Shown here: piece by piece, positions 9,966-18,256 of the stretch
Numbering within the stretch: the first letter of the stretch is position 1
Layout: the number at the start of each line of letters is the position of its first letter
NCBI GenBank assembly: GCA_022822085.1
Contig: JAJECK010000071.1
Location: forward strand, 1-32,381
DNA from: Candidatus Poribacteria bacterium
GTDB taxonomy: Bacteria; Poribacteria; WGA-4E; WGA-3G
DNA: 32,381 nt
Reading direction: 5' to 3'
Notes under the pieces: generated by a model
Database searches by the model: none
Seen by the model: the letters and a program-made list of their open reading frames with translations, nothing else
What the model was told of the DNA's origin: nothing
Made by a program: the position numbers and the translations under genes

Positions 9966-10244
9966 AAATTAACTCGAGTTGCTACCTATAAGTTTTTAGA
10001 CCTGAAAACACCGTCTTTAATCAAAAATACTGATAATTAGCCAATATTTGTAGCGTGAACTCCCAGTTGGCACTCGGACGACACAAACTGAATGAAGTTT
10101 AAGTAAATATTTAGGTAATTTGGCGAGGTTAGGAAACCTCGCCAGCGGAGGAGCGAAACTTGCCTCGTACGGATAAAAAATTACCGAATTAATAAATTAA
10201 TCTTCATGAAGTTTGTGGTACAAGGTAGCAACTTGAGTTAAATT
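9966..10244. repeat. 279-bp segment bounded by 22-bp inverted repeats
   Basis: The arm at 9966-9987 (core AACTCGAGTTGCTACCT) and the arm at 10223-10244 (core AGGTAGCAACTTGAGTT) are inverted copies matching at about 20 of 22 positions. The right arm covers the cytochrome stop codon (10243-10245). The MITE-like copy at 10083-10217 lies inside, so this looks like an older element interrupted by a younger one. No coding potential is seen inside. Confidence 0.55.
10083..10217. repeat. MITE-like element, copy A
   Basis: Imperfect terminal inverted repeats of roughly 40 bp (10083-10123 and 10176-10217) flank a core. Their inner part reads TGAAG...GGTAATT on one side and AATTACC...CTTCA on the other. 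The core holds a 9-bp-stem hairpin with an AGGA loop at 10122-10143 (GGCGAGGTT/AACCTCGCC), then a GC-rich stretch AGCGGAGGAGCGAAAC and CCTCGTACGG. The same core and ends recur at 21681-21958 between ribosomal protein genes. It has no open reading frame, so any movement would need a transposase acting in trans. Confidence 0.75.
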
Positions 10245-11268
10245 AAGGAACTGTTTTACTTACTTCTGCCATTAGGACCCACTTTGTTTCGGGGGTTTCA
10301 GGGGTCAGTTGGTACCTTAATTGTCCAGTAAGAGTATCACCCTGTTTAACATCATAGACAAACGTACGTTTCTCATCAGGTTTAAGACGATTTTCCTCTT
10401 TTGCTGAGATCAATACTTGTTTCTTCTGATGTTGGGTGCCATCAGGTGAGAAGTGCATTACATCAAGGATGATAGTACGTAACGTTCCACCCGGCAATAA
10501 ATGTCCCGCTCTGTTTTGAAGAATCACGGTTACCTGCTTACCTTCAAACTCAATCTTGAGTGTTGCTGCACTCTTTAGTTGAGCAACACTACGGCTCCCT
10601 CGCCAAGTATGTTTCCTCCCTTTGATACTTTCATAACTTGCTATGCTTTGTATCCGCTTAACAACTGGCATGTGACAAGTTGCACAATTTTTCTTTTCAG
10701 TCGCATATCTGCTTTCAAGAAAACTTGATACCTGGTCGTGTTCGGGAACACTTTTTTGACCATGACATGTAGCACATAGTTTTGTTGGTGCCGTAAAGAT
10801 AGGATCGGTTACATTTACATGAAAATTTGTTTCAGCACTTGCTGGCGGTCCATGCATTGCACCGTCCTTATCCAGATGACATATTAGACATGAAACGCCT
10901 GAGTCCCGTTGTACGTTACGCAATTTCGGCATTTTCCCGATACCTGTCACAAGTATCGGTTCGGGGGCATGGCACGGGTCGCAGCTTTTTTCTCTATCAT
11001 CTACTTGCTCTGCAGCGGCTTGATAGATTTCATCCACCCATGCTTGTGCATGCATTGATTTTTCCCATTCTCGCCAAATCGCAGGATGACAACTCTTACA
11101 CTTGCCCTCTTCAAAGGAGCGAAACATGTCATGATACTTAGTGTCCTTGCTGCGTACATCAGATACAATAGATGCAAATAGTATGAAAACACATATCACT
11201 GCAGGACACAAAAAAATACTAATTTGAGAAAAAACTGTAAAACGGACCATCGTTCTTCTATATTTCAT
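10243..11268 (-). CDS. Five-haem cytochrome c (c554-like)
   Basis: This 341-residue exported protein has five CxxCH haem-attachment motifs: CKSCH (57-61), CDPCH (96-100), CLICH (127-131), CATCH (165-169) and CATCH (195-199). Residues 10-36 are a long hydrophobic segment acting as signal peptide or anchor, which places the haems in the periplasm. After the haem domain a ~110-residue beta-rich C-terminal domain begins at RAGHLLPGG, a motif seen in many bacterial multihaem cytochromes. It probably shuttles electrons, but the partner is unknown. The start overlaps the end of hemG by 11 bp, so the two are probably translationally coupled. An alternative start is Met7 (11250), which has AGAAG in front and lies just beyond the hemG stop. 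It is the last gene of the haem cluster, so haem supply and a haem consumer may be co-expressed. Confidence 0.88.
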   Translation of the reverse strand: MKYRRTMVRFTVFSQISIFLCPAVICVFILFASIVSDVRSKDTKYHDMFRSFEEGKCKSCHPAIWREWEKSMHAQAWVDEIYQAAAEQVDDREKSCDPCHAPEPILVTGIGKMPKLRNVQRDSGVSCLICHLDKDGAMHGPPASAETNFHVNVTDPIFTAPTKLCATCHGQKSVPEHDQVSSFLESRYATEKKNCATCHMPVVKRIQSIASYESIKGRKHTWRGSRSVAQLKSAATLKIEFEGKQVTVILQNRAGHLLPGGTLRTIILDVMHFSPDGTQHQKKQVLISAKEENRLKPDEKRTFVYDVKQGDTLTGQLRYQLTPETPETKWVLMAEVSKTVP

Positions 11269-12682
11269 TGAGTAACTTCACTGCTGCTTGTTGCCCGCTA
11301 TTAATACAATCAGGAATACCGATGCCGTAGTAAGCATTTCCGGCTAAAGCAAGTCCAGAAAAGTTCTCTACCAATTCATCTATTTCACTAACAAGTTTTT
11401 TGTGATCAACCATGTATTGTGCCATGGCTTGTGTATGTTGGCTGACGACTGAAAAAATAGGTTCTTTTTTAATACCGAGTAAATCCGATACCTCTTTAAG
11501 TACGGTAGTAAGCAATTCAGTTGAGTCGGGTCCTTCGTAAAATAAATTTGTGTTTTCACCGACAAAAGCGCGTAATAGCACATGATCCGTAGGTGCCCGG
11601 TTTTCAAATTTCACACTACTAAATGAACACCCCACTAAGTTCAATCCTTCCGTTATTGGCACAACAAAACCCATCCCATTGAGAGGGTGTATCACATCTT
11701 CACGCCGAAAAGCAAGATTTACAGTTACAGATGATGTGTATGGAATAGTAGAAAGTTTGTCAACAAGAGCGGCTGAAACTAAAGATATTAGAATTGCTGT
11801 TTGGTGTGCTGGTAACGCAATACAGAGTCCGTCTGTCTTCAACTCCTCGCCACCATCAAGACAAACACCCCAACCTTCTTCATCACCGATATGTTGAATA
11901 TTGGTTACAGTGTGTTTGAGACGAATACAATCACGTAGTTTTTCAGCAAGTGTCCCTATTAATGTCTGCATCCCTGCTGTAAAAGATTGAAACAAACTGT
12001 AACGTGGTCCACTTGTACCACGGCTTGTTTGTGCAGACTTCCGTTTTTGTGCCAAAAGTGCCTTGATGATACTCCCATGTTCACGTTCCATATCCAGAAA
12101 TCTTGGAAATGTAGCATTAAGACTTAAGTTTTCTGCATCAGAGGTATAGATACCGCCTATCATCGGTTGTGCCATCCGTTCAAACGCCTGTTTTCCAAGT
12201 CTACGTCTAACGAATGCTGCAACTGATTCATCATCTGGATCATTGCGACGTGGAATTAATAGATCGAGTGCAATACGAAATTTGCCCGACAAACTGAAGA
12301 TAGGGCTTTTTAAAAAAGGGCTAATAGCTCCCGGTGCCATCATGTAAAAACCTTCAGGGACTGGTAGCAACTTCCCTTTTCTGACAACAAAACTTCGTCT
12401 GACATGTGGGTTTGTACCGATCAGTTTATCTGCCAGACCAAGTTCTTCACATAAGGCTTTTGCCCACGGCTTTGATGTAATGAATGCATCGGGACCGTGT
12501 TCAATGATAAACCCATCTCGGTGTTCGGTTTGAATAACACCACCAACCCTATTTGATGCTTCAAGCAGAATAACCTCAAGTGGAATACCTCTTTTTTCTG
12601 CTTCCTGTCTTAAGTGATAAGCTGCTGTCAGACCAGTGATGCCGCCCCCTATAACAATTGCGCTTTTCTGTTCACGTGCCAT
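11258..12682 (-). CDS. hemG: Protoporphyrinogen/coproporphyrinogen oxidase (HemY type)
   Basis: This 474-residue flavoprotein has an FAD-binding GGGITG (12-17) at the N-terminus, a following E-rich strand and loop (LEASNRVGG, ~40-48), and a C-terminal FAD contact at GLALAGNAYYGIGIPDC. It is the oxygen-dependent HemY/PPOX family (called hemG or hemY in databases), which oxidises protoporphyrinogen IX to protoporphyrin IX; CgoX-type members oxidise coproporphyrinogen III instead. No signal peptide is present, so it is cytoplasmic or peripheral on the inner membrane. Start ATG 12682 has GAGGGG seven bases upstream. It lies 47 bp after hemH and overlaps the cytochrome gene. The order hemE-hemH-hemY resembles Gram-positive coproporphyrin-dependent operons, so the substrate is not settled by sequence alone. 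Confidence 0.92.
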   Translation of the reverse strand: MAREQKSAIVIGGGITGLTAAYHLRQEAEKRGIPLEVILLEASNRVGGVIQTEHRDGFIIEHGPDAFITSKPWAKALCEELGLADKLIGTNPHVRRSFVVRKGKLLPVPEGFYMMAPGAISPFLKSPIFSLSGKFRIALDLLIPRRNDPDDESVAAFVRRRLGKQAFERMAQPMIGGIYTSDAENLSLNATFPRFLDMEREHGSIIKALLAQKRKSAQTSRGTSGPRYSLFQSFTAGMQTLIGTLAEKLRDCIRLKHTVTNIQHIGDEEGWGVCLDGGEELKTDGLCIALPAHQTAILISLVSAALVDKLSTIPYTSSVTVNLAFRREDVIHPLNGMGFVVPITEGLNLVGCSFSSVKFENRAPTDHVLLRAFVGENTNLFYEGPDSTELLTTVLKEVSDLLGIKKEPIFSVVSQHTQAMAQYMVDHKKLVSEIDELVENFSGLALAGNAYYGIGIPDCINSGQQAAVKLLNEI

Positions 12683-12729: not shown

Positions 12730-13674
12730 CTACATCTCAGCTTTTTCACAAACAAATTCGGCGAGCATACTTATGAATTTGGGATGGTCACCCACTGTTC
12801 CTGCACGAATAAACTCTATTCCACCTGTATCCGCTATCTCTTTCGCTTCTATATCAAGGTCATATAACACTTCAACATGGTCACACAAGAACCCTATCGG
12901 AGAAGCAACGACAGTATCAACACCTTCTTTTTTCTTTGCTCTGAGCCAATCATTGATATCCGGTTGCGTCCACGGCACAGTGCTGGTTTCCACTTCACTT
13001 TGGTAGGCAAAATCAAACCTTGTTTTTCCGAGTTCATGTGCGACCGCTTCACCTGTTTTTTCAAACTGTTGGGAGTAAGGTGAACTATCAGCTGCGGCTT
13101 GAGGAATTGCGTGTGCAGTGAAAACCAGTTCTGCACGATCTAATTTGTCACCACAGGCAGATTTTATATTCTCAGCGATGGCACTAACATAGCCTTTGTG
13201 AGTATACCACGGTTCAAGATAATCAATAGTGAGTTTATCTCCTTCAACTGCATCAATACCCTTCTTGACTGCCAGTTGATACCATTCCCAGCTTACTTTA
13301 GATTGGTGAGGTGCCATAATTATTCCGAGGATTTTACGGTGTCCCTGATTAGCCATGTCAGCGATGACTTCCTTTAAATAGGGGGCCCAATGTCTAAATC
13401 CAGCAAAAACAGGCAGCGGTAAGTTCCTTTCCTTTAATGCGTTTTCTAATGCTTTGACTTGTTTAAAGGTCAATTCGTTGAATGGCGAAAATCCACCTAA
13501 TTGTACGTAATGGGATGAAATGTCTTTAACACGCTCTTTTTGAGATTCTGCTTCGCCGGCAATTCCTTCAACAAAGCAGTATGCCTCACCGGGGCAGTTT
13601 TTGGTATCATATTTTTTACAGCATCCAGGGGTTGGCCCGCCAAATGCTACGAGTAAAACGCTATCATATTTCAT
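12730..13674 (-). CDS. hemH: Ferrochelatase
   Basis: This 314-residue class II chelatase inserts Fe2+ into a porphyrin. Family landmarks are the N-terminal VLLVAFGGP, GGFSPFNELT (~60-69), GFRHWAPYLK, the metal-binding histidine in FTAHAIP, YQSEVETSTVPWTQP, and the acidic pair region PIGFLCDHVEVLYDLD. After the first strand it carries a short cysteine-rich stretch (C18, C19, C27, C33) where textbook ferrochelatases have an acidic EDV-type helix. The role of these cysteines (metal or Fe-S ligand, or disulphide) is unknown. ATG 13674 has AGGAG seven bases upstream, overlapping the stop of the MBL gene. Whether it acts on protoporphyrin IX or coproporphyrin III cannot be told here. Confidence 0.93.
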   Translation of the reverse strand: MKYDSVLLVAFGGPTPGCCKKYDTKNCPGEAYCFVEGIAGEAESQKERVKDISSHYVQLGGFSPFNELTFKQVKALENALKERNLPLPVFAGFRHWAPYLKEVIADMANQGHRKILGIIMAPHQSKVSWEWYQLAVKKGIDAVEGDKLTIDYLEPWYTHKGYVSAIAENIKSACGDKLDRAELVFTAHAIPQAAADSSPYSQQFEKTGEAVAHELGKTRFDFAYQSEVETSTVPWTQPDINDWLRAKKKEGVDTVVASPIGFLCDHVEVLYDLDIEAKEIADTGGIEFIRAGTVGDHPKFISMLAEFVCEKAEM

Positions 13675-13683
13675 TTTTGTCTC

Positions 13684-15141
13684 CTATGCCATATTAGCAA
13701 ATTGTGCGGGGATAAAACTCGGATCAACAGCAATTGCTTGTGCAAATGCTTCACGTGCGGGCGTTTCATCACCATTCGTGCGATGTGCGAGTCCAATGGA
13801 AAAGTAGGCTTGGGCGAGCTGTGTGCCTTGAATGCCGTTAACTAATGCCTTATAGATTGAGTCCATACCGGGTGTGGGATCGTCACCATTTCGGTAAGCT
13901 GAGAGGATATAGTTGGATCCGCGTAAAAGATGCGCTGGCGCGTAATCTGGGTTTAATTCAAGTGCAGTGTTGAGCGCATTTTTCGCCTCAAAGAAGAAAT
14001 CCCCTTTCTCAAGTACACTCGACACCGTCCGAGATGCCTGTATTAGCAGGTTAGCATATTCAGTCCATGTCTCTGGTAAAGTCGCAAATTTTTCCGTTGC
14101 GACTTTCAAAATAGCGATCGCTAATCCCAAATCATCACCTTCTGCCACCTCCTCAGCCGTTTCACGATATGCATCAAAATCTTGAAGTTCTTTTGTGGTT
14201 TGAGAAAACACATCCGCATCTGCTGATGGAATAGCAGACGGTTTGAAGTGCTGCCATCCCGGTTCCGGGTCGTCAATCAATCCACGATATACACGTAGGA
14301 TTGCATAACGAGGTGTGCCCCATACTTCAGCGATGTCGAGAATCCAATTCGGCATGTTAGCCTCCATATCAGAAAGCAATTCTGCTAAAGACATACCCTG
14401 CTCAACTCGATTTCGTACTTCTGAAAGAAAATAGGATTCTATTTTAATCAACAAGTCTATTTCTGCATCGTGTGCTAAAGGACCATGGCCGGGCAGCACA
14501 TGTTCTGGATCATAAGTACGCAGTTCCTGAATAGTGTTAATCCAATCATGGTTCGCCATAAGTCCTTCATTCATGACGGGTTGTCCAAAAATTGGAAAGC
14601 TACCGGTCATCACTGTATCCCCAGATACGATACATCCCTCTGCTGGTATTCTGATGGCAGTTGCGTCATCCGTTTCGGCTTTTCCCATGTGAACGAGATG
14701 TAAGGGTTGATTGCCCAAATCAAGTTCCATTTCGTGCGTAAATGTCTGTTGTGGTAAAAACGGTGGGTCTCCAAGTGTGAACCCGCGTGACCGTAAAAAA
14801 TCCTCTTGCCGTGGTGCCCGATTTACCATAAAATCTTTAGTCATCTCGCGGGCTACAACCGTTGCCCCTTCTTCACGAAATATTATATTTCCATTAGTAT
14901 GATCCCAATGATAGTGTGTATTTATCGCATACAGAATCGGTTTATCCGTTATGGAACGAATAGTTTTTAGCAACCGTCTACCCATCATTTGGTTTACCTG
15001 TGTGTCTACCACAGCAACCCCATTTTCTCCTATAATTATTGAAGAGTTGACGATATTGCGAAATAAATAGACTCGTTCTGTCACCTTAATTAGTTCTCCA
15101 TACTGTCGTGGAGCAAAAGGGTTTTCTTGAATGTTTCTCAT
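13684..15141 (-). CDS. MBL-fold metallohydrolase with C-terminal TPR-like region
   Basis: This 485-residue protein starts with a metallo-beta-lactamase domain (~15-230). The zinc motif THYHWDH gives H76, H78, D80 and H81; further ligands are probably in SGDTVM and PGHGPLAHD. The middle (~240-290, DIAEVWGTPRYAILRVYRGL then EPGW) resembles the alkyl-sulfatase dimerisation domain. The last ~170 residues (LNTALELNPDYAPAHLLRG, then REAFAQAIAVDPSFIPA) look like tetratricopeptide repeats. No signal peptide is seen. ATG 15141 is chosen because AGGA lies six bases ahead; a TTG at 15144 is also in frame. It sits between hemE (8 bp) and hemH (9 bp), clearly inside the haem operon. Its substrate is unknown; possible roles are thioester, sulfate-ester or nucleotide hydrolysis, or a scaffold in tetrapyrrole handling. 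Confidence 0.85.
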   Translation of the reverse strand: MRNIQENPFAPRQYGELIKVTERVYLFRNIVNSSIIIGENGVAVVDTQVNQMMGRRLLKTIRSITDKPILYAINTHYHWDHTNGNIIFREEGATVVAREMTKDFMVNRAPRQEDFLRSRGFTLGDPPFLPQQTFTHEMELDLGNQPLHLVHMGKAETDDATAIRIPAEGCIVSGDTVMTGSFPIFGQPVMNEGLMANHDWINTIQELRTYDPEHVLPGHGPLAHDAEIDLLIKIESYFLSEVRNRVEQGMSLAELLSDMEANMPNWILDIAEVWGTPRYAILRVYRGLIDDPEPGWQHFKPSAIPSADADVFSQTTKELQDFDAYRETAEEVAEGDDLGLAIAILKVATEKFATLPETWTEYANLLIQASRTVSSVLEKGDFFFEAKNALNTALELNPDYAPAHLLRGSNYILSAYRNGDDPTPGMDSIYKALVNGIQGTQLAQAYFSIGLAHRTNGDETPAREAFAQAIAVDPSFIPAQFANMA

Positions 15142-15149
15142 CAATTATC

Positions 15150-16229
15150 CTAAAATGTCTTTGCTACATGGACAAAATGTTTCACGTTCTCAAAAGGTGT
15201 GTCTCTATGAAGACCGTGGCTAAGGTTTAGTATATGTCCTGTCTTTCTTCCTTGTTCAATACAAGTTTGGACAGCTTGGGTGATGTCAGAAAAAGTTCCA
15301 TCTCGGAGGACATCGTTATCTACATTTCCCTGAAATGCGACTGAATCGTCTGTCTCGGATTTTGCTTTTTCAAGGTCAACACACTTCCCTATACTTAGGA
15401 CATCTGCTCCACTTTGGTACATTAAATTAACGTAAGGACACTCTTTAGCAAACAGTATTCCTGGTACATCTCTATTAATTCCCGAAAATATTCGTTGATG
15501 ATAAGGAAAAGCATAACGCTTATACAATTCCTCTGATAACACATCTGCGATGGATTCAAATAGTTGCACAACCTGAGCACCTTGACTGATCTGAAAATTC
15601 AGATAGTTGATTGTCATTTCAGTCAATTTGTCTAACAGTTTGTGCATAAGTTGCGGTGTCTGTTCCATCATATCAAAGACCGGGGTTGCTGCTTCCGAAA
15701 TACCTTCACCTTTTTTCATTGGACTCTCCCCTGCAATAAGGAAAAAGGCAAGTGTCAATGGTGCCCCCGCAAAACCGATGAGTGGCAATTCACCATTCAA
15801 CGTTTCTCGGAGCGTACGTATCACTTGTCCTGTGAACTCCAATTGTACGTATGGATTATCCAACGGAGTAAGGGACTCTATCTGTGATTGTGTTCGTATT
15901 GGTGGGTTTAACACAGGACCGGGGAGGAACCTAAACTGTGCCCCCATAGGTGCAAGCGGTGTAAGTATGTCCTTATAGACAATTATAGCGTCTACACCGA
16001 TCCGTTTAGGTAGTAGCGATATTTTTACTGCAGCTTCAACATCAGCGTCTGACATTGGGAAGGGACAAGTTCGGAACAAGCGTTCCAACGGAAGGTTAAG
16101 TTTTTCTCGAATTTCACGATAGAGAGGATCTGATCTACCCGCCTGCCGCATCATCCACACAGGCACGCGTTCTACCGGCAGACATCTCGCCGCGCGAAGA
16201 AGTAAGTCGTTTTTCAATTGTTGTGTCAC
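15150..16229 (-). CDS. hemE: Uroporphyrinogen decarboxylase
   Basis: This 359-residue cytoplasmic enzyme decarboxylates uroporphyrinogen III to coproporphyrinogen III. The signature PVWMMRQAGR (23-32) supplies the substrate-binding arginines. The catalytic aspartate is D87 in VYKDILTPL, and GFAGAPLTLA, the region around QGAQVVQLFES and LNLSHGLHRDTP near the end are family-typical. One oddity is that RSDPLYREI replaces the usual RYLPEYRE after the signature. The start is GTG (16229), only 4 bp after the stop of the Uma2-like gene and without a clear Shine-Dalgarno, so translation may depend on coupling to that gene. It is the first haem gene of the cluster. Confidence 0.94.
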   Translation of the reverse strand: MTQQLKNDLLLRAARCLPVERVPVWMMRQAGRSDPLYREIREKLNLPLERLFRTCPFPMSDADVEAAVKISLLPKRIGVDAIIVYKDILTPLAPMGAQFRFLPGPVLNPPIRTQSQIESLTPLDNPYVQLEFTGQVIRTLRETLNGELPLIGFAGAPLTLAFFLIAGESPMKKGEGISEAATPVFDMMEQTPQLMHKLLDKLTEMTINYLNFQISQGAQVVQLFESIADVLSEELYKRYAFPYHQRIFSGINRDVPGILFAKECPYVNLMYQSGADVLSIGKCVDLEKAKSETDDSVAFQGNVDNDVLRDGTFSDITQAVQTCIEQGRKTGHILNLSHGLHRDTPFENVKHFVHVAKTF

Positions 16230-17911: not shown

Positions 17912-18256
17912 TCATTGCGAAAGGTTTCTCTTCTGACGACGTTCCAAAATTTGTCTTAACTTGGCAAAACTCTTAACGTTTTTCATTATCCTACCACTTT
18001 CACGTTCTTCAAGATATAACAAGAATCCCATAACATAGAGACTTAATAAAAACAACAAAAATCCCGATATGCATTGAGCAATTGCTCCGTAATTTCCTTT
18101 GATACTCAGGTATGGGGTGACTTTCACATCTTCAACTGCTACATCAGGCGCACTCTGTTCTGGCCACTCTATAGAAATAAAGTCACCCCATCCTGTTATA
18201 CCGAGAGACAAAAAGACGATTGACAACGCAAAAACGATAAAAAATGGTATTCCCAT
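17912..18256 (-). CDS. Small membrane protein of unknown function
   Basis: This 114-residue protein has two membrane segments: residues ~3-23 and ~62-84. Between them is a ~35-residue loop, probably outside the cytoplasm (WPEQSAPDVAVEDVKVTPY). The tail is strongly basic (KNVKSFAKLRQILERRQKR), which should keep the C-terminus inside. No family is recognised. It starts 13 bp after the dehydrogenase stop and lacks a good Shine-Dalgarno, so it is probably the second gene of that unit. A chance ORF is possible, but the clear membrane topology argues for a real gene. Confidence 0.6.
   Translation of the reverse strand: MGIPFFIVFALSIVFLSLGITGWGDFISIEWPEQSAPDVAVEDVKVTPYLSIKGNYGAIAQCISGFLLFLLSLYVMGFLLYLEERESGRIMKNVKSFAKLRQILERRQKRNLSQ

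What the first reader, a model, noticed from the sequence alone, without database searches (positions are those of the whole stretch)
13684..15141. MBL-TPR protein embedded in the haem operon
A metallo-beta-lactamase-fold hydrolase fused to an alkyl-sulfatase-like dimerisation region and TPRs sits between hemE and hemH with 8-9 bp gaps. I know of no haem-synthesis step that needs such an enzyme. It could be a new accessory factor, for example in substrate channelling, quality control or linking haem supply to the downstream cytochrome.
Basis: inference. Interest (0 to 1): 0.55.

Follow-up and report, generated by a model that had tools for sequence, protein, structure and literature searches.

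The report
Conserved hydrolase-TPR gene in haem operon
In Poribacteria, an uncultured group of bacteria known mainly from sponges, an uncharacterised metal-dependent hydrolase gene sits between two haem-making genes and shares its evolutionary history with one particular form of the iron-inserting enzyme, which suggests an unknown helper of haem synthesis.

Summary
Window 13684-15141 (-) encodes a metallo-beta-lactamase (MBL)-fold protein with a helical, TPR-ending C-terminus, 8 and 9 nt from hemE and hemH. The organism belongs to Candidatus Poribacteria. The gene is single-copy in 61 of 84 phylum genomes (58 of 58 in the home family). It lies between hemE and hemH in 36 of 38 carrier loci read, window included. 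Its dN/dS is the lowest of the haem genes compared, and seven metal-ligand positions are invariant in 38 of 38. The closest whole-length folds are type III alkylsulfatases. It shares their Glu for the third metal His, but not their second Glu or SCP-2 domain. The haem route around it looks coproporphyrin-dependent and complete with or without it, so it fills no missing step. New here: its presence follows the ferrochelatase (HemH) lineage rather than rpoB. Carrier HemH sequences form one clade with six fixed differences; rpoB rejects carriers as a clade at p 0.016. I read it as a dedicated accessory of the HemH step, probably a hydrolase; its chemistry is unproven.

The parts
13684..15141 (-). 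MBL-TPR protein (485 aa from ATG; TTG alternative at 15144)
   Evidence: orthologues
14485..15057 (-). MBL-fold domain, residues 30-220 (numbering of the 486-aa form); ligand positions H77 H79 D81 H82 E157 D176 H220
   Evidence: domain; all seven invariant in 38 of 38
13687..14217 (-). helical C-terminus, residues 310-486, ending in TPR (Pfam TPR stretches at 386-409 and 444-476)
15150..16229 (-). hemE, uroporphyrinogen decarboxylase
12730..13674 (-). hemH, ferrochelatase (coproporphyrin type by kinship and pocket residues); the H95-type variant of MBL carriers
11258..12682 (-). hemY/cgoX-like oxidase
10243..11268 (-). multihaem c-type cytochrome at the end of the cluster
17912..18256 (-). 114-aa protein without a Pfam family above cut-off; lies upstream of hemE also in g7 and g10 genomes without MBL, not found in the f3 loci

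Best explanation
It is a dedicated accessory enzyme of the coproporphyrin-dependent haem pathway of Poribacteria, coupled to the ferrochelatase (HemH/CpfC) step. Shown: it is an intact MBL-fold protein with an invariant dinuclear ligand set under strong purifying selection, lying 8 and 9 nt from hemE and hemH, and its presence tracks one HemH lineage. Inferred: it descends from the short alkylsulfatase-dimerisation MBL family; it works as a metal-dependent (probably Zn) dimeric hydrolase on a carboxyl derivative of the tetrapyrrole or a related small ester or lactone; and its C-terminal helices/TPR dock it near HemH, so that the substrate entering iron insertion is kept clean or its delivery is tuned. 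The HemH changes (F93, H95, A121, W131, at or beside positions that align with the pocket of solved enzymes) would be the partner's adaptation.
For: hemE-MBL-hemH in 36 of 38 carrier loci and 51 of 52 (overlapping set). Single copy in 61 of 84 phylum genomes. dN/dS 0.046-0.059 in four comparisons, below hemE, hemH, hemY and the cytochrome in each (dS is near or above 1 in many of these). Seven ligand positions invariant in 38 of 38. HemH: six columns fixed for different letters between 37 MBL+ and 10 MBL- sequences, the HemH of G035 included, which is not next to MBL. On one set of 15 genomes HemH has 6 such columns of 297, rpoB 0 of 1055, hemE 0 of 335. Carrier HemH is one clade at 100/99 and HemH rejects taxonomic family f4 held together (p-AU 0.00016); rpoB does not reject f4 (0.37) and rejects the carriers held together (0.016). 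H95 aligns with B. subtilis H88 (counted by hand); W131 precedes Y132, which aligns with B. subtilis Y125, taken as Listeria Y124, the propionate-2 tyrosine (PMC9794026 passages).
Against: No substrate, metal or binding partner is shown. g7 and f3 genomes have the same pathway genes without it. G038 carries MBL but no ferrochelatase was found (92% complete), and in both g4 genomes MBL stays with hemE, not hemH. The HemH differences may stem from one event, two HemH rows are long branches, and the carrier grouping was tested after a first tree had been seen. With f3 left out rpoB also has 3 fixed columns (HemH 9, hemE 0). hemE rejects neither grouping. Plasmid relatives of the fold family have no haem gene in the annotated 2.5-kb flanks seen (two further loci carry no annotation).
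Confidence: 0.4

Rival explanations
1. A hydrolase of an unrelated small molecule (ester, lactone, sulfate ester or thioester) that entered the hem operon once and is kept there for co-expression only.
For: Annotated plasmid relatives lie beside transporters, an amidase or an alpha/beta hydrolase, not haem genes. The pathway genes are present without it in g7 and f3.
Against: It stays next to hemE in three families (f1, f2, f4), its presence tracks the HemH lineage against rpoB, and it has the lowest dN/dS of the haem genes compared.
Confidence: 0.33
2. A scaffold or regulatory protein: the MBL domain binds metal (for instance Fe2+) and the TPR holds HemE/HemH together or senses or delivers iron; catalysis is secondary.
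For: TPR end; short gaps to both neighbours; the HemH change at the residue aligned with B. subtilis H88, which I recall as metal-linked but did not find in the passages read; S. aureus CpfC has a regulatory iron site (PMC5633918 passages).
Against: A complete, invariant ligand set and an invariant 17-residue loop 179-195 look like an enzyme.
Confidence: 0.15
3. A di-iron oxidase or oxygenase of MBL fold acting on a porphyrinogen, as CmlA is a di-iron hydroxylase of this fold.
For: Glu replaces the third metal His in 38 of 38; I recall the same exchange in CmlA. PMC7785958 passages list CmlA among iron-dependent MBL oxidoreductases but give no ligands for it.
Against: The same ETDD motif occurs in six of seven plasmid relatives aligned, and Glu is found in zinc alkylsulfatases (PMC5426288), so it is a family trait. 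The oxidase step already has HemY above cut-off in 49 of 59 genomes, 48 of the 49 in f1-f4.
Confidence: 0.06
4. A type III alkylsulfatase.
For: Whole-length fold matches to YjcS, SdsA1, Pisa1 and SdsAP; Glu at the His196 site.
Against: Asp, not Glu, at the Cys221 site; no SCP-2-like domain found; the arginines of the YjcS loop after the second site have no counterpart in the alignment (that this loop binds sulfate is recalled).
Confidence: 0.05

Closest known systems
Type III alkylsulfatases (SdsA1, SdsAP, Pisa1, YjcS)
   Same: MBL domain plus helical region over 428-473 aligned columns; Glu (Asp in Pisa1) in place of the His196-site ligand
   Different: Asp not Glu at the Cys221 site, no SCP-2-like domain, TPR end, 13-19% identity with rmsd 7.7-12, different gene setting
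Short (420-436 aa) MBL proteins of the 'alkyl sulfatase dimerization domain-containing' kind from Cupriavidus (two), Haloferax, Terrarubrum, Halomarina and Ensifer plasmids (the last two unannotated)
   Same: ETDD motif in all six and the same layout; HxHxDH, SGD and PGHG/SGHG motifs in the four that are not from Cupriavidus
   Different: 22-26% identity for the five found by tblastn, no TPR extension; the GW-rich motif of the dimerisation region is degenerate in the Poribacteria protein
Quinoprotein relay system zinc metallohydrolase 2 (TIGR04559)
   Same: best NCBIfam match (124.5 bits, residues 30-263)
   Different: far below the curated cut-off of 280; His at the third ligand in the one member aligned, which lies near a methanol dehydrogenase gene
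8d2z (Burkholderia cenocepacia MBL-superfamily protein) and 6uxu (chlorothalonil dehalogenase)
   Same: best structural neighbours of the MBL part (Z 20.4 and 21.3)
   Different: cover about residues 13-300 only; 8d2z lacks several metal-site letters in the alignment

Membership tests
Metallo-beta-lactamase superfamily | PF00753 above cut-off | tested here: met
   74.6 bits, cut-off 22.7
Metallo-beta-lactamase superfamily | HxHxDH and the later Asp and His ligands | tested here: met
   H77 H79 D81 H82 D176 H220 in 38 of 38
Metallo-beta-lactamase superfamily | His at the third ligand (His196 site); common but not universal in the superfamily | tested here: not met
   Glu157 in 38 of 38; the same exchange is described for SdsA1 and SdsAP
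Type III alkylsulfatase | Glu (or Asp) at the His196 site | tested here: met
Type III alkylsulfatase | Glu at the Cys221 site | tested here: not met
   Asp176 in 38 of 38; Glu in the three solved enzymes
Type III alkylsulfatase | dimerisation domain PF14863 | tested here: inconclusive
   1 of 38 members at E 0.066; fold matches span the region
[quoted passage not shown]
   the protein ends in helices/TPR
Quinoprotein relay zinc metallohydrolase 2 | TIGR04559 above cut-off | tested here: not met
   124.5 against 280 bits
CmlA-type di-iron oxygenase | iron in the site and O2 chemistry | not testable with these tools
   the ligand likeness is recalled only
Coproporphyrin-dependent haem pathway (context) | CgoX-like HemY and CpfC-type HemH | tested here: met
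   HemY above cut-off in 49 of 59; HemH nearest to CpfC chains with the aligned Tyr, Ser and Tyr of the coproporphyrin pocket in 47 of 47, though His at the Arg45 position; substrate not testable
Coproporphyrin-dependent haem pathway (context) | coprohaem decarboxylase ChdC | tested here: inconclusive
   PF06778 above cut-off in 47 of 49 f1-f4 genomes but at 57-68 bits and mostly over its C-terminal half
Coproporphyrin-dependent haem pathway (context) | no HemF and no canonical HemN | tested here: inconclusive
   HemF in 0 of 59; only below-cut-off HemN relatives except in G051

The most novel reading that the evidence does not exclude
A previously undescribed haem-biosynthesis protein: an MBL-fold TPR enzyme that co-evolved with one form of coproporphyrin ferrochelatase and acts on its substrate or its iron supply, so that HemH and MBL form a two-part module which replaced, or was replaced by, a stand-alone HemH in different Poribacteria.
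Probability: 0.3. Interest if true: 0.75.

Novelty: new variant of a known kind. Interest (0 to 1): 0.45.

Why it matters
No step of haem synthesis is known to me to need an MBL-fold enzyme (recalled; searches listed no paper that links them, within one open-access library). If the HemH link holds, it names a testable helper of iron insertion in a pathway described as mainly used by monoderm bacteria (PMC9794026, abstract in listing 77), here in an uncultured phylum. It also gives a natural comparison: the same pathway genes with and without the helper, together with the HemH residues that change.

Tried and rejected
Filling a missing step: rejected, since HemE, HemY, HemH and a ChdC-like protein are found in genomes with and without MBL.

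Di-iron oxygenase from the His-to-Glu exchange: at first attractive; weakened when the same ETDD motif appeared in six of seven plasmid relatives.

Chance insertion: rejected.

Gain or loss read from species relations alone: inconclusive. The rpoB trees leave the order of g4, g6, g10 and g7 open, and several rpoB frames carry long inserts.

VIA-align rows covered mainly the MBL part; alkylsulfatases and CmlA are not among its 50 rows, nor is CmlA among the 50 Foldseek rows shown; that shows nothing.

Paper searches listed no paper on an MBL gene in a haem operon. Search 71 read 'hemE' as 'heme', so it was loose. A role of B. subtilis H88 was not found in the passages read and is recalled. Papers were seen as passages only: PMC5426288, PMC7785958, PMC5633918, PMC9794026, PMC9133952 (81, one reference entry); none was read whole.

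Promoter-like sites are at chance level (23 found, 22.8 expected), so no promoter is claimed.

The Listeria-to-B. subtilis residue numbers (one apart) were inferred from the active-site residues named in the papers, not from a printed Listeria alignment.

Full report
What is there. The window is contig C115 of a 5.6-Mb genome, G000. Close relatives of the protein in a named collection are all Candidatus Poribacteria (52 of 52 loci); that these are mostly sponge symbionts is recalled. On the minus strand lie two Uma2 genes, hemE, the gene in question, hemH, hemY and a multihaem cytochrome. The gene runs 13684-15141 from ATG, with a TTG one codon upstream. It starts 8 nt after hemE stops, and hemH starts 9 nt after it ends. 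No terminator-like site on the coding strand lies between the three genes, and promoter-like matches there are at chance level.

Anatomy. Residues 30-220 are an MBL domain (PF00753, 74.6 bits). From residue 227 on the model is mostly helical, ending in TPR (TPR_14 and TPR_2 at E up to 0.1 in 38 of 38 orthologues). H77, H79, D81, H82, E157, D176 and H220 are invariant in 38 of 38 sequences, and so is a 17-residue stretch M179-L195. The third ligand is Glu where most MBLs have His. Passages of PMC5426288 say that SdsA1 and SdsAP have Glu there (Pisa1 Asp) and that all three have Glu at the Cys221 site. Here the second site is Asp.

Kinship. Foldseek ranks 8d2z first (294 columns, MBL part) and then type III alkylsulfatases: YjcS, SdsA1, Pisa1 and SdsAP at E 2.4e-11 to 1.6e-9 over 428-473 columns, TM-score 0.43-0.48 by the query, rmsd 7.7-12. 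tblastn in plasmids finds 298 records. The five best-placed rows lie at 22-26% identity, and three of them are annotated as alkyl sulfatase dimerization domain-containing proteins; two have no annotation under the match. In an alignment of five Poribacteria sequences, YjcS and seven plasmid proteins, six of the seven plasmid proteins (420-436 aa) share E-T-D-D at the third ligand; the seventh, a quinoprotein relay metallohydrolase, has His. So the Glu is a family trait and not a sign of haem chemistry. The TPR end and the degenerate GW-rich motif set the Poribacteria protein apart.

Distribution. Full-length orthologues occur in 38 of 59 genomes, G000 counted, and in 61 of 84 phylum genomes at E 1e-30, one per genome: 58 of 58 in family f1, 2 of 2 in f2, 1 of 9 in f4, 0 of 3 in f3, 0 of 12 elsewhere. 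The scan of 84,980 named species uses short exact patterns and reaches close relatives only. I read gene order in 38 of the 61 carriers. Of 37 carrier loci fetched, hemE is the nearest tested gene upstream in 37 and hemH downstream in 35; with the window this makes 36 of 38 with both. The exceptions are the two g4 genomes, where MBL follows hemE and hemH is elsewhere (G035) or not found (G038). In the overlapping named set both neighbours are adjacent in 51 of 52. Six g7 genomes have hemE directly followed by hemH with no MBL, and so do three f3 genomes with a distant hemE. In g10 (G048) the contig ends after hemE and hemH lies on another contig.

Constraint. In four comparisons inside the genus (Nei-Gojobori) dN/dS of MBL is 0.046-0.059. 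It is lower than hemE, hemH, hemY, the cytochrome and Uma2 in each; only the ADH gene upstream is lower. dS is near or above 1 in many pairs, so the absolute values are rough.

The pathway. HemF: 0 of 59. HemN above cut-off: 1 of 59, G051; most others have weaker radical-SAM relatives. HemY above cut-off: 49 of 59. HemH: 48 of 59. A PF06778 (ChdC-family) protein: 52 of 59, strong only in five f5 genomes; the own copy aligns with HemQ/ChdC structures at E 7e-7 to 9e-4 over its C-terminal half. HemH matches B. subtilis and other coproporphyrin ferrochelatases (E 2e-37) well ahead of the mitochondrial enzymes (about 1e-21). It keeps in 47 of 47 the Tyr, Ser and Tyr that align with B. subtilis 47, 54 and 125, taken as Listeria Y46, S53 and Y124, which bind the coproporphyrin-specific propionates (PMC9794026 passages). 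The Arg45 position is His. The route is therefore most likely coproporphyrin-dependent, and looks complete with or without MBL.

The new clue. Between 37 HemH sequences of MBL carriers and 10 of non-carriers, six columns are fixed for different letters: A10/G, F93/M, H95/N, A121/S, Y162/F, E229/D. W131 is R or E in non-carriers, V127 (or F, I) is A or S, and K/R217 is a gap. The HemH of G035 lies away from MBL yet has the carrier letters. On one set of 15 genomes HemH has 15 of 297 disjoint columns (6 fixed), rpoB 8 of 1055 (0 fixed) and hemE 4 of 335 (0 fixed). Leaving out f3 the figures are 31 of 304 (9), 22 of 1060 (3) and 10 of 346 (0). In the HemH tree the carriers are one side of a branch at 100/99, and family f4 held together is rejected (p-AU 0.00016). 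In rpoB f4 is not rejected (0.37) and the carriers held together are (0.016). hemE rejects neither (0.275 and 0.323). So HemH and MBL share a history that differs from rpoB's. It may be a single event (joint transfer, or joint loss with replacement of HemH). Two HemH rows are long branches, and the carrier grouping was tested after a first tree had been seen. This is evidence of coupling, not of chemistry.

Reading. I take the protein to be an accessory enzyme of the HemH step, with hydrolase chemistry more likely than redox. The closest alternative is a passenger hydrolase kept only for co-expression. Which substrate it cuts, which metal it holds and whether it touches HemH are not shown.

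Novelty. No paper linking an MBL protein with a haem operon was listed by searches of the held open-access library; subscription papers are mostly missing there. The kind (MBL hydrolase of alkylsulfatase layout) is known; the TPR form and its tie to HemH are a new variant.

Noticed in passing
window 13576-13623 (hemH N-terminus): HemH carries C18, C19, C27, C33 and also C264 in 47 of 47 Poribacteria sequences. The first four lie before the part that aligns with the best-matching solved ferrochelatases (from residue 44). It could be an iron-sulfur or zinc site of a new layout; I recall [2Fe-2S] ferrochelatases with other cysteine positions.
   Followed up: partly
L150:1093-1827: The ChdC/HemQ-like protein is very divergent: PF06778 matches at 57-68 bits, mostly over its C-terminal half, in 47 of 49 f1-f4 genomes.
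   Followed up: partly
window 17912-18256: A 114-aa protein without a Pfam family above cut-off lies upstream of hemE also in g7 and g10 genomes without MBL, and may be an older companion of hemE.
   Followed up: no
L136, L137, L138: Family f3 has a quite different hemE (35-36% identity) still next to a related hemH, suggesting hemE replacement in place.
   Followed up: no
L198-L203: rpoB frames of the g2, g3 and two g7 genomes looked at are about 1494-1767 aa with unmatched inserts between matched parts, possibly inteins or lineage inserts; seven f2 and f4 genomes also have partial rpoB-like matches in a second frame of 1024-1104 aa.
   Followed up: no
L177:389-1807: A 472-aa HemN-like radical-SAM protein (CxxxCxxC followed by YF) occurs besides a 374-aa HemW-like copy (L178:3762-4886); its role is open.
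   Followed up: no
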